Below are positions 22,871-26,842 of a stretch of 64,000 bases of DNA, one piece after another (position 1 is the stretch's first letter; every line of letters starts with the position of its first letter). This stretch comes from Phorcysia thermohydrogeniphila. Lineage in GTDB: Bacteria; Aquificota; Aquificia; Desulfurobacteriales; Desulfurobacteriaceae. Under the pieces are notes generated by a model that ran no database searches, was not told where the DNA came from, and saw only the letters and a list, made by a program, of their open reading frames with translations. The stretch covers positions 1 through 64,000 of the forward strand of contig NZ_SMFV01000003.1 in assembly GCF_004339575.1 (NCBI RefSeq). The letters are read 5' to 3'. The position numbers were made by a program, and so were the translations under genes.

Positions 22871-24092
22871 TTACCTTTTCCTCCTCTCTCTTCTTTTTCA
22901 CGTTTTCCAACCACTCCCTGAAGAAAGCTGCAAAGATCCCCAAGAACAGTCCGGAGACAAATCCAACAGTTACTATCAGGCCTTTTTTAGGTTTGTACGG
23001 CTTATCTCTCGGTGGAATGTACGGAGGGTCTATTACTTGAAATGAAATTTGCTCCTTCATTTCCTGAGCTTTTGCCATTTCGTACTCACCTGCAAGGGTT
23101 ACCAGCAACTGCTTCACTATTTCCATCTGGGTTTGAAGCTTTTGGAGATTAAGCTGATAGTCCGATACGGAAACATAACTGCTCTTTCTAAGAGTGTTAA
23201 GGTGCGCTTTCAGCCTTTCTATCTCCTTCTTTAGTTTCTCTATTTCTGCTTTCTCAGGAACATTGGACTTTAGATCCTCAAGATCATGGTCACCTATGAT
23301 AAATGGAACATCTTTAATTTTCCCGTTCATGAAGTCCTTGTATATTCTCTCAAGTTCCTGGTACTTTTCTTTAGCTAAAGCAAGTTGTTTTTCAACGTAA
23401 ATTCTGTACTTCTTTGCCAACGTAAAAGCTTTTTCATTGAGAATATTCCGAGCTTCTTTGAGGGCTGTAATGGCTATTCTATAGCTCATTTCCGGGTCTT
23501 TCGGAAAATCAACGGTAAGGGTTACAACGCCCGTTTTCTTATCGGTGGATACGGACATAAAATCCTCAAGCTTCTTAGCACCGTCAATAAGAGTTGGAGG
23601 AGTTTCATCTTCAGCAAGTTTCCAGCTTTCCGTAGTCTCATCCCACTTGTCAGGAAAAAGAACAGGTAGAAGGTTAAGGTCTTTTACAATCCTTTCTCTT
23701 AGTATTCTACTGTTTAAAACCGATTCAACGGTTATTCCCGCCTGCCCTCCCGGCAAAGGAATGGAAATAGGAAGAGACGAAAGAAGAGAAGATAATTTTG
23801 AACTTTGTTCTCCCCCCAAGGGCATCAGCGAGGCTTCCGTTCGGTAAGTGGGAGGCAGAACAAAGCAAAGAACAAGAGCAATTGTGGTGAAAAGGACAGT
23901 AATTCCTATTACTGTTTTCTTTCTTCTTTTAAGGGTAAGCCAGAGCTCATACAGGTCTATCTCATCATCAAAGGTTTCAGGTGGCAGGTTTTCTGGCTTC
24001 AAGTTTTCCTCCGGGCTTTTAACGTAGTGGTTTATATTATAACCTTGTAGAAAAGGGAACACTGCTTTGAGGATAAAATGGTAACGGTTCAT
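22863..24092 (-). CDS. wzz: Polysaccharide chain-length determinant, Wzz family
   Basis: A 409-residue inner-membrane protein of the polysaccharide co-polymerase type. It has an N-terminal cytoplasmic part with EIDLYELWLTLKRRKK, a first membrane helix at about 56-76, and a long periplasmic region with coiled coils (about 215-345). A proline-rich VIDPPYIPPRDKPYKPKK segment precedes the second helix at about 375-395. It sets chain length with Wzy. No C-terminal BY-kinase domain is fused and none is nearby. ATG 24092 has GGAG six bases before it. Its upstream region was split from radA by the tnpB element. Confidence 0.9.
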   Translation of the reverse strand: MNRYHFILKAVFPFLQGYNINHYVKSPEENLKPENLPPETFDDEIDLYELWLTLKRRKKTVIGITVLFTTIALVLCFVLPPTYRTEASLMPLGGEQSSKLSSLLSSLPISIPLPGGQAGITVESVLNSRILRERIVKDLNLLPVLFPDKWDETTESWKLAEDETPPTLIDGAKKLEDFMSVSTDKKTGVVTLTVDFPKDPEMSYRIAITALKEARNILNEKAFTLAKKYRIYVEKQLALAKEKYQELERIYKDFMNGKIKDVPFIIGDHDLEDLKSNVPEKAEIEKLKKEIERLKAHLNTLRKSSYVSVSDYQLNLQKLQTQMEIVKQLLVTLAGEYEMAKAQEMKEQISFQVIDPPYIPPRDKPYKPKKGLIVTVGFVSGLFLGIFAAFFREWLENVKKKREEEKVNA

Positions 24093-24235
24093 TTAAAACT
24101 CCACGAGGAGCTACCGCCCTTTTAAAAAGTTTGGTTTACAGAAAAATTTGCGAGAAAGCCCTGCTTTTCAAAGCAGAAATGAATCGCACGGCGTAAGCCG
24201 TTGAATCTGAAAACCGTTGGAATAGATTATAGACT

Positions 24236-25474
24236 ATGGTTCAGACAAAAGCAGAAAGAATTAAAAACACCCTAAGACGAACCCGTGAAAGGAGAAAACA
24301 CCAAATTCCCCGTGTCTATCAACTCAAACTCCAGAACCTATCAAAAAAAGACGAGGAAAAACTGAATAGACTCTTCCTTGAAGCTAAGTGGTTCTACAAC
24401 TGCATAGTTGCAGACATTGAAAACCGTCTAAGCGGTAACACTTGGAAACTCAAAGAAGTAGAAATCAAAACACCAGAAGGACTTGAAAAGAGAGAGATAA
24501 AACAGCTTTCATCACATATGAGACAGGGAATAGTAGAAAGGATAAAGAGAAGTCTCTACTCCCTCAAAAAAGCAAAAGAGAAAGGAATCAAAGTAGGAAA
24601 ACTCTCCTTTAAGAGCGAAGTAAGGAGCATACCACTAAAGCAGTATGGAACAACCTACAAGATTTCGGGAGACAAAAATAGAGTAAAGATACAGGGGATA
24701 AAGAAAAAATTCAGAGTTTTAGGACTTCATCAGATACCGAAAAGCGCAGAACTTGCAGAAGCTCAGCTTGTAAAGAAACCGTCTGGATACTACCTACACG
24801 TAGTCTGCTACCTTCCGAAAAAAGAGGTTTTAAAAGAAATCAAAGAGAAACAGGTAAAAGAACCAGTAGGGATAGACTTAGGAATAAAGCACCAATTAAC
24901 CCTATCAAACGGAGAGAAATTTAGTTGGTATATACCTGAAACAGAGAGGCTAAAAAAGCTTCAAAAAGAACTCTCACGAAAACAGAAAGGGAGCAAGAGG
25001 TATCAGAAGATAAAGGAGAAGATAAGGAGAGAGTGGGAATACATCAACAACAAGAGGAGAGATGTTCAGAGCAAGGTAATAAGCTACCTCAAGAAGTTTC
25101 TCCTTATAGCGGTTCAAGATGATAACATCAAAGGATGGAAAGAAGGGTATTTTGGGAAACAGATACAAAACACAGGGATAGGAGGAATAACTGCAAGACT
25201 AAGAAGTCTTGCGACTCTTATCCCTGTAGTGTTTGTGGATAGGTATGAACCGACGACACAAGTCTGTTCTTTTTGTGGGAACAGACAGAAGATTTCTCTA
25301 TCTGAAAGGACATTCAAGTGTCAAAAGTGTGGTGTGGAGATAGACAGGGACGTGAATTCGGCGAGGAACGTACTGAGGGTGGCGCTAAGTAGGCTGGCAG
25401 ATCCTTTAAAGTCCGCCCTACCCGTGGACTGCGGGGAAGTAACACCCGTGGAGTGGGTGTATAGCCCACGATGA
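24236..25474 (+). CDS. tnpB: RNA-guided endonuclease TnpB (IS605 OrfB family)
   Basis: A 412-residue TnpB. The N-terminal half has the WED/REC pattern (QLKLQNLSKKDEEKLN, AKWFYN). The RuvC parts are GIDLGIKHQLTLSNG (first Asp), AVQDDNIKGW (second motif), and DRDVNSARNVLR (third Asp). A zinc ribbon CSFCGN...CQKCG lies between the last two. In the second motif the usual Glu of the EDL/EDx pattern is Gln and an Asp appears two residues later. TnpB proteins cut DNA beside a short TAM using a guide RNA from the element's right end. No Shine-Dalgarno is seen before ATG 24236. Confidence 0.95.
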   Translation: MVQTKAERIKNTLRRTRERRKHQIPRVYQLKLQNLSKKDEEKLNRLFLEAKWFYNCIVADIENRLSGNTWKLKEVEIKTPEGLEKREIKQLSSHMRQGIVERIKRSLYSLKKAKEKGIKVGKLSFKSEVRSIPLKQYGTTYKISGDKNRVKIQGIKKKFRVLGLHQIPKSAELAEAQLVKKPSGYYLHVVCYLPKKEVLKEIKEKQVKEPVGIDLGIKHQLTLSNGEKFSWYIPETERLKKLQKELSRKQKGSKRYQKIKEKIRREWEYINNKRRDVQSKVISYLKKFLLIAVQDDNIKGWKEGYFGKQIQNTGIGGITARLRSLATLIPVVFVDRYEPTTQVCSFCGNRQKISLSERTFKCQKCGVEIDRDVNSARNVLRVALSRLADPLKSALPVDCGEVTPVEWVYSPR

Positions 25475-25517
25475 AGCGGGAAGCCCCTCACTTCGGTGAG
25501 GGGAGGAAGTCACTCAA
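25370..25517 (+). ncRNA. Probable TnpB guide RNA (omega/reRNA) scaffold
   Basis: Known TnpB guide RNAs derive from the 3' end of tnpB and the element's right end, and continue into flanking DNA as the guide. Here that region is rich in stems: CACCC/GGGTG (25443-25458), GTGGG/CCCAC (about 25453-25470) and the CCCCTCAC/GTGAGGGG hairpin (25484-25503). The guide would start at 25518 (GTAACAGGG...), which runs into the radA start. The 5' boundary is a guess. Confidence 0.45.
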
Positions 25518-25534
25518 GTAACAGGGTTTTTGCC

Positions 25535-26842
25535 GTGAAGGGAAAGAGCGTATACATCTGTCAAAACTGTGGATACAAAACCTATAGATGGACAGGGAAG
25601 TGTCCTGAATGTGGTAGTTGGGGTAGTTTTGTTGAGGAAGTCGTAGTCTCTGCCCCTAAGAAAACAAGAGCTGGATGGGTCAAACCTTCCACATCCGAAC
25701 CGCTTCCACTTGAAAGGATAGGCGAAAAACAGGCTGAAAGAATTCCAACCGGACTAAAGGAGTTTGATAGAGTTCTTGGAGGAGGAATCGTAAAAGGTTC
25801 TGTTTCTTTAATTTCAGGAGAGCCGGGAATTGGAAAGTCTACATTTTTGCTCCAGATTTCAGATATCTTTTCCCAAAGCGGGAACGTACTTTACGTTACA
25901 GCAGAGGAGTCTCCTGAACAGATTGCTCTGAGAGCAACAAGGCTCGGAATTAAGAGTAAGAATTTATTCGTCCTTGCAGAGAATAATTTGCAGGAAGTAG
26001 AAAAGCAGGTTGAGAGGATAAAACCAGAGCTCGTAGTTTTTGACTCCATACAGACGCTTTACCTTCCCTACATAGAGTCTGCTGCCGGCTCTGTTTCTCA
26101 GGTAAGGGAGTCTGCTGCCTTTATCACAAACCTATGCAAGGGTAAGGGAATAACAGCTTTCATAGTCGGTCACGTAACGAAAGAGGGAACAATTGCAGGT
26201 CCTAAGGTCCTTGAGCACATAGTTGATGCCGTCTTTCAGTTTGAGGGAGACAGGGGTTACAACTTTAGGGTTTTCAGGAGCTTAAAGAACAGGTTCGGCT
26301 CAACTGGAGAGCTTGCCGTTTTTGAGATGACGGAAAAGGGCCTTGTTGAAGTTTCTAACCCCTCTGAATTTTTCCTATCGGAAAGGCCTACCGGAAAGCC
26401 GGGGTCTGCTATCTTTGCCGGAATGGAAGGAAGCTGTCCAATACTGCTTGAGGTTCAAGCACTTGTAACAAGAGCAGTATTTACAACTCCCCAGAGGCGA
26501 GCTAAAGGAATTGACTCAAACAGGCTATCAATCATAGTGGCGGTAATTGAAAAGGAATTGGGTTACCCTTTGAGGAACTTTGACGTTTTTGTCAACGTTG
26601 TCGGCGGTGTGAAGGTAAACGAACCGGCAGTTGACCTTCCTATAGCCGCAGCCATTATCTCAAGCTATTTAGACAGACCCATCAAGGAAAATCTCGTTCT
26701 TTTTGGAGAAATTGGACTTACAGGGGAGGTGAGGAAAGTAAGGCTTGAAGAGCTCCGCCAGAAAGAGGCCGAGAAAAACGGCTTTGAGGTTTTAAAAGGT
26801 ATCAAGACTATCTCGGAGCTCCCCGAAAAAGCGCTCGTTTAG
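25535..26842 (+). CDS. radA: DNA repair protein RadA (Sms)
   Basis: A branch-migration ATPase acting in recombination with RecA. It opens with a C4 zinc finger (CQNCGYKTYRWTGKCPECGSW). The Walker A is GEPGIGKST, KNRFG is the RadA signature, and the C-terminal half is the Lon-protease-like domain (GGVKVNEPAVDLPIAAA). The start is taken as GTG 25535, giving 435 residues starting MKGKSVYICQ. The frame is open back to GTG 25496, but those 13 codons lie in the tnpB element's right-end hairpin and just beyond, not native radA. Only a weak CAGGG lies upstream. Confidence 0.94.
   Translation: MKGKSVYICQNCGYKTYRWTGKCPECGSWGSFVEEVVVSAPKKTRAGWVKPSTSEPLPLERIGEKQAERIPTGLKEFDRVLGGGIVKGSVSLISGEPGIGKSTFLLQISDIFSQSGNVLYVTAEESPEQIALRATRLGIKSKNLFVLAENNLQEVEKQVERIKPELVVFDSIQTLYLPYIESAAGSVSQVRESAAFITNLCKGKGITAFIVGHVTKEGTIAGPKVLEHIVDAVFQFEGDRGYNFRVFRSLKNRFGSTGELAVFEMTEKGLVEVSNPSEFFLSERPTGKPGSAIFAGMEGSCPILLEVQALVTRAVFTTPQRRAKGIDSNRLSIIVAVIEKELGYPLRNFDVFVNVVGGVKVNEPAVDLPIAAAIISSYLDRPIKENLVLFGEIGLTGEVRKVRLEELRQKEAEKNGFEVLKGIKTISELPEKALV

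What the first reader, a model, noticed from the sequence alone, without database searches (positions are those of the whole stretch)
24140..25517. tnpB element wedged 17 bases before the radA start, with ISHp608-like borders
Flanking TTAC and TCAA, the subterminal hairpins, and a clean 64-base rejoined spacer support the borders. The insertion parts radA from any native promoter, so radA may now depend on tnpB or guide-RNA transcription. The predicted guide starts with GTAACAGGGTTTTTGCCGTG, which includes the radA start, so TnpB would target alleles without the insertion.
Basis: partly seen in the sequence, partly recalled or inferred. Interest (0 to 1): 0.6.

Follow-up and report, generated by a model that had tools for sequence, protein, structure and literature searches.

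The report
tnpB insertion between radA and promoter
A common kind of small mobile element carrying the RNA-guided DNA cutter TnpB has landed 21 bases before the DNA-repair gene radA; this is ordinary mobile-element biology, apart from the untested possibility that radA now depends on the element's transcript.

Summary
The element is real: a tnpB-only IS200/IS605-type insertion (IS1341-like) in a Desulfurobacteriaceae genome, between divergent wzz-like and radA genes. The left border (TTAC|24140) holds. The right border is wrong by four bases: 27 related copies all end ...GTCA[C/T], conservation collapses right after, and empty sites for two related insertions rejoin exactly there. The element is 24140-25513 (1,374 bp); the "TCAA" at 25514-25517 is host DNA. 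radA begins 21 bases (not 17) downstream; the rejoined spacer is 68 bases (not 64). A 16-20-nt guide (TCAAGTAACAGGG...) carries radA's likely ribosome-binding site but stops short of its GTG start. The IS608 end-pairing rule also fits TCAC (GAAG/TCAC replaces GAAT/TCAA). The guide-RNA scaffold has covarying helices and tnpB is under purifying selection. The usual RuvC-II glutamate is Q294, with glutamate E338 at the known "alternative" position, so TnpB is probably active rather than a dead repressor. The genome has no Y1 TnpA, so movement needs outside help. Targeting of empty radA alleles follows from the general TnpB model; dependence of radA on the element's transcript is plausible but unshown. 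New member of a known kind, low to moderate interest.

The parts
24136..24139 (+). TTAC target/left cleavage site (host side), also predicted TAM (TTTAC 24135-24139)
   Evidence: TTAC borders the left end of related copies, most of them TTTAC
24140..25513 (+). whole tnpB-only IS200/IS605-type element, 1374 bp
   Evidence: Left and right borders from related copies (27 right ends) and empty sites of two related insertions
24155..24158 (+). left guide tetranucleotide AAAG (as in IS608 GL)
   Evidence: Sequence; IS608 rule from PMC5934647
24161..24176 (+). left subterminal hairpin CTGCTTT-TC-AAAGCAG
   Evidence: DNA fold z -3.6
24201..24228 (+). candidate tnpB promoter TTGAAT-N16-TAGATT
   Evidence: TTG[AC]A[ATC]-16/17-T[AT][GA]ATT at the same place in 9 related copies although the spacer diverges; only 8/12 match to consensus
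24236..25474 (+). tnpB, 412 aa; RuvC residues D214, Q294 (canonical Glu lost), E338 (alternative Glu), D372
   Evidence: NF040570 guided_TnpB 150 bits against cut-off 100; PF07282/PF01385; motif survey; dN/dS 0.08-0.18
25394..25513 (+). omega-RNA scaffold, overlapping the 3' end of tnpB
   Evidence: Five helices, 97.5% of cells paired, 13 pairs with changes on both sides, 0/500 shuffles reach this
25480..25483 (+). right guide tetranucleotide GAAG
   Evidence: Sequence; fits TCAC by the IS608 rule
25484..25503 (+). right subterminal hairpin CCCCTCAC-TTCG-GTGAGGGG
   Evidence: DNA fold; covarying helix 5
25510..25513 (+). right cleavage site TCAC = right end of the element
   Evidence: Conservation stops here in 27 copies; empty sites
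25514..25533 (+). predicted guide (first 16-20 nt of host DNA: TCAAGTAACAGGGTTTTTGC)
   Evidence: Follows from the corrected right border; only match in the own genome within 3 mismatches is this place itself, next to TCAC and not TTAC
25523..25526 (+). likely radA Shine-Dalgarno AGGG, inside the guide
   Evidence: Sequence; 8-nt spacing to GTG 25535 (inference)
25535..26842 (+). radA/sms
   Evidence: TIGR00416 548 bits against cut-off 403

Best explanation
This is a tnpB-only, non-autonomous element of the IS200/IS605 superfamily (IS1341-like), 24140-25513. It was inserted by a Y1 transposase acting in trans, 3' of a TTAC (TTTAC) site in the radA 5' leader, without target duplication. (Shown: borders, target, hairpins, absence of TnpA in this genome. 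Inferred: trans mobilisation.) Its TnpB probably binds the omega-RNA cut from the 3' end of its own mRNA and uses about 16-20 nt of the radA leader (TCAAGTAACAGGGTTT...) as guide. It would cut chromosomes that carry the empty TTTAC-radA leader and so help to restore the element by recombination. The donor copy would be spared because its guide-matching DNA is preceded by TCAC and not TTAC. (Inferred from the TnpB family.) radA keeps its own likely ribosome-binding site and start codon and is probably transcribed by read-through from the element. (Inferred.)
For: TnpB family membership. Right border: sharp conservation drop after GTCAC in 27 copies from many loci. Empty sites for two related insertions, in G007 and in G028/G026/G049/G037/G038, rejoin at TTAC| with no duplication. 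IS608-type guide/cleavage pairs: AAAG/TTAC as in IS608, GAAG/TCAC against IS608 GAAT/TCAA, i.e. a matched change at the fourth position. Scaffold covariation. Purifying selection on tnpB. RuvC-II: Q at the canonical Glu position goes with Glu six residues before the zinc finger in the window's clade; canonical relatives have the RuvC-II Glu and no such second Glu, matching the Ealt arrangement described in PMC10711439. No Y1 TnpA in the own genome, but in 7 of 22 family genomes; at least one autonomous copy (L114) has nearly the same right end.
Against: No RNA or protein data. The empty radA site itself cannot be aligned in the only same-genus genome. The structure model was too weak (pLDDT 62.7) to place E338 in the active site, and PMC10711439 gives the alternative Glu position both as 'six residues upstream' and with a pattern having six residues in between, so the match is close but not certain. 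A distant copy (L071) lacks that Glu, so some members may be inactive.
Confidence: 0.87

Rival explanations
1. The right border is TCAA at 25517, exactly as in ISHp608.
For: TCAA is the IS608 right cleavage site and happens to stand at 25514-25517.
Against: All 27 copies end at GTCA[C/T] and nothing after it is conserved; empty sites rejoin after TCAC; the right guide here is GAAG, which fits TCAC, whereas GAAT goes with TCAA.
Confidence: 0.03
2. TnpB has been domesticated as a nuclease-dead RNA-guided repressor (TldR-like), with radA or another gene as its target.
For: The canonical RuvC-II glutamate is replaced by glutamine (Q294).
Against: The replacement is clade-wide and accompanied by a Glu at the alternative position; D214 and D372 are kept; copies lie at unrelated loci with different guides and intact transposon ends; the guide has no TAM-flanked target in the own genome.
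Confidence: 0.05
3. A decaying, functionless insertion that only happens to be intact.
For: Single copy and no transposase in this genome.
Against: dN/dS 0.08-0.18 against relatives, open frame, intact ends and covarying scaffold; these show past function of the family more than present activity of this copy.
Confidence: 0.08

Closest known systems
IS608/ISHp608 (IS200/IS605 family)
   Same: TTAC target and left cleavage site, AAAG left guide, subterminal hairpins, no target duplication
   Different: Right cleavage site TCAC with guide GAAG instead of TCAA with GAAT; no tnpA
IS1341-group tnpB-only elements
   Same: Only tnpB between IS605-type ends
   Different: None evident
ISDra2 TnpB (PDB 8bf8, 8ex9, 8h1j)
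   Same: TnpB with zinc finger and RuvC; guide RNA scaffold ends at the right end of the element
   Different: Only distantly related (best stretch 71 bits); canonical Glu in RuvC-II; target/TAM TTGAT and not TTTAC
TnpBs with rearranged RuvC-II ('Ealt', PMC10711439)
   Same: Canonical Glu lost, Glu six residues before the first zinc-finger Cys
   Different: RuvC-I is D-L-G, not the D-P-G of pro-Fanzors
RAGATH-18/IS607 reRNA (PMC11061315)
   Same: Weak resemblance of the scaffold (31.8 bits)
   Different: Below the gathering score of 44.9; scaffold here overlaps the tnpB coding sequence

Membership tests
IS200/IS605 superfamily, IS608-like ends | Insertion 3' of a short fixed target kept at the left flank, no target duplication | tested here: met
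   TTAC at the left end of related copies; empty sites rejoin without duplication
IS200/IS605 superfamily, IS608-like ends | Subterminal hairpins each preceded by a guide tetranucleotide matching the cleavage site | tested here: met
   AAAG/TTAC and GAAG/TCAC
IS608/ISHp608 itself | Right cleavage site TCAA | tested here: not met
   TCAC in 26 of 27 copies, TCAT in one
IS200/IS605 superfamily, IS608-like ends | Y1 TnpA mobilises the element | tested here: inconclusive
   No TnpA in the element or in this genome; TnpA with near-identical right end in a related genome
IS1341-like tnpB-only element | tnpB alone between complete IS605-type ends | tested here: met
   1,374-bp element holds only tnpB; no Y1_Tnp match in the genome
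TnpB RNA-guided endonuclease | TnpB profile above the curated cut-off | tested here: met
   NF040570 150 bits, cut-off 100
TnpB RNA-guided endonuclease | Conserved structured scaffold ending at the right end | tested here: met
TnpB RNA-guided endonuclease | D-E-D catalytic triad | tested here: inconclusive
   D214 and D372 present; canonical Glu is Q294, Glu338 at the alternative site; model too weak to check geometry
TnpB RNA-guided endonuclease | RNA-guided DNA cleavage with a TAM | not testable with these tools
   Needs biochemistry
TldR nuclease-dead repressor | Loss of transposon ends and a fixed genomic context and guide | tested here: not met
   Ends intact; context and guide differ between copies
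IS607/RAGATH-18 TnpB | RAGATH-18 RNA above its gathering score | tested here: not met
   31.8 against 44.9 bits

The most novel reading that the evidence does not exclude
radA has been captured by the element: it is made only from the tnpB/omega-RNA transcript, and because radA's ribosome-binding site lies inside the guide, processing or binding of that RNA by TnpB sets how much of the recombination protein RadA is made. TnpB would then control, in cis, a DNA-repair gene that acts on the kind of break it makes.
Probability: 0.07. Interest if true: 0.6.

Novelty: new member of a known kind. Interest (0 to 1): 0.27.

Why it matters
As it stands, this is one more tnpB-only insertion, with corrected borders and guide. 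It would matter more if radA were shown to be expressed from, and regulated by, the TnpB guide-RNA transcript: that would be a direct link between a TnpB element and a host recombination gene, and a simple case in which the guide region of an omega-RNA doubles as a gene's ribosome-binding site. The clade is also a tidy set for testing whether TnpBs with the relocated glutamate and a TTTAC motif are active in thermophiles.

Tried and rejected
Right border at TCAA 25517: rejected. Direct empty-site comparison at radA with the same-genus genome: neighbours match, spacer does not align. Other targets of the guide: apart from the own site, six relatives give only 3-mismatch matches, and the reversed-pattern control gives hits at a similar rate; no exact match in viral contigs. 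Sigma-70 and terminator scan: no promoter over threshold, and no terminator on the tnpB-radA strand. RAGATH-18 and HgcC Rfam matches: below gathering scores. AlphaFold model with seven sequences: low confidence, not used. Is insertion just before start codons a special habit of the family? Three of 27 right ends lie within 25 nt upstream of a co-oriented start (radA 21, L083 13, L015 2), which selection for intergenic insertions alone could explain. In one search the first letters of the query were mistyped; the match used begins at position 16.

Full report
What was checked. The finding describes a tnpB element inserted just upstream of radA at 24140-25517, with ISHp608-like borders and a guide that includes the radA start. 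The genome is about 1.62 Mb in 8 contigs; its relatives with close copies are named Desulfurobacterium, Thermovibrio and other Desulfurobacteriaceae.

The element. An intact ORF of 412 aa at 24236-25474 matches TnpB: NCBIfam NF040570 with 150 bits against a cut-off of 100, Pfam PF07282 and PF01385 above their cut-offs, and solved TnpB structures. Downstream, 25535-26842 is radA/sms (TIGR00416, 548 bits). Upstream on the other strand lies a Wzz-like chain-length determinant gene starting at 24092. The same element family at 71-88% protein identity is spread through the family Desulfurobacteriaceae, with copies in MAGs labelled Aquifex, Pseudothermotoga and Deltaproteobacteria. It is single-copy here.

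Borders. The left border is as claimed: TTAC 24136-24139 with the element starting at 24140, and TTAC (mostly TTTAC) next to the left end in related copies. The right border is not as claimed. Twenty-seven right ends from different loci end in GTCA[C/T]; the five last positions hold 1.8-2.0 bits, and the positions after them 0.03-0.36 bits. The search pattern fixed GTCA, but neither the last base nor what follows. Two related insertions have relatives with an empty site: the lptB-side insertion in G012 against G007, G016 and G019, and the insertion 2 bases before a start codon in G044 against G028, G026, G049, G037 and G038. Rejoining at TTAC|...TCAC| reproduces the uninterrupted sequence without duplication; G007 and the g11 genomes are the clearest. 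The IS608 rule gives the same answer. IS608 has GL AAAG with CL TTAC and GR GAAT with CR TCAA (PMC5934647). Here AAAG/TTAC is unchanged, and the right end has GAAG (25480-25483) with TCAC (25510-25513), a matched change at the fourth position. The element is therefore 24140-25513, 1,374 bp. The TCAA at 25514-25517 belongs to the host.

Consequences for radA and the guide. From the corrected border to the GTG at 25535 there are 21 bases, and the rejoined spacer between the two genes is 68 bases. TnpB guides are about 16-20 nt (PMC8612924, PMC11061315), so the guide is TCAAGTAACAGGGTTT(TTGC). It contains the probable radA Shine-Dalgarno (AGGG, 25523-25526), not the start codon. In the own genome the only match within three mismatches is this very place, preceded by TCAC instead of TTAC. 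That would spare the donor copy while an empty allele (TTTAC + guide) would be cut. This is the general TnpB model, not something tested here.

Scaffold. The 120 bases before the border form five helices in 18 related copies: 97.5% of cells paired, 13 of 27 pairs with changes on both sides, none of 500 shuffles as high, and slid controls at 49-59% paired. The scaffold overlaps the end of tnpB, as in IS200/IS605. A TnpB has been shown to cut such a scaffold out of its own mRNA (PMC10278001).

Is the nuclease alive? The canonical RuvC-II glutamate is glutamine (Q294) in the window's whole clade, and the clade carries a Glu six residues before the first zinc-finger Cys (E338 before C344). Canonical TnpBs in the same set of genomes have the RuvC-II Glu and no Glu at that place. 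One distant relative (L071) lacks the second Glu. This is the arrangement called Ealt in PMC10711439, although that paper describes the distance in two slightly different ways. D214 and D372 are present. tnpB evolves under purifying selection (dN/dS 0.08-0.18). A dead TldR-like repressor is therefore unlikely. The AlphaFold model was too weak to check geometry.

Mobility. No Y1 transposase is found in this genome. Seven of 22 family genomes have one, and one autonomous copy (L114, G006) has nearly the same right end and a similar left end. Mobilisation in trans is the simplest explanation.

radA expression. All native upstream DNA of radA lies beyond the insertion. No convincing native promoter was found (best 8 of 12 matches). 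The tnpB promoter candidate TTGAAT-N16-TAGATT is positioned identically in nine copies but is also only 8 of 12. No terminator was found on this strand between tnpB and radA. Read-through is plausible; nothing here shows it. If it occurs, trimming of the guide's 3' end would separate radA's ribosome-binding site from its reading frame. This is the one feature that would lift the case above the ordinary.

Verdict. New member of a known kind, with corrected borders and guide; interest low to moderate.

Noticed in passing
L015 (G044 C2), right end 2 nt before an ATG; also L083: A related element sits between a TATAAT and the start codon of another gene; its own end GGAGGAGG falls 6 nt before that ATG and could serve as ribosome-binding site. 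L083 is a third case (13 nt before ATG).
   Followed up: partly
L004, L008, L067, L070, L078, L079, L082: In 7 of 10 copies where an opposite-strand frame of over 100 codons reaches the right end, the frame is such that a native G-TAA stop (in TTAC) would become G-TGA from the element's GTGAC (a TAG at the junction in L082): the element's end preserves stop codons it lands on.
   Followed up: partly
L112-L115 (G003, G007, G006, G004): Autonomous IS605 copies with TnpA seem to use TTTAG with left guide AATC, where the tnpB-only elements use TTTAC with AAAG: a matched change at position four (read by eye).
   Followed up: partly
G000:C5:117060-118205 (L086): A second TnpB-like gene in this genome, about 31% identical to this one and with a strong match to the Pfam TnpB domain; its ends were not examined.
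   Followed up: no
window 25409-25522: Weak match to HgcC RNA (RF00062, 20.3 bits, gathering 50): HgcC may itself be a TnpB guide RNA; no held paper names both.
   Followed up: no
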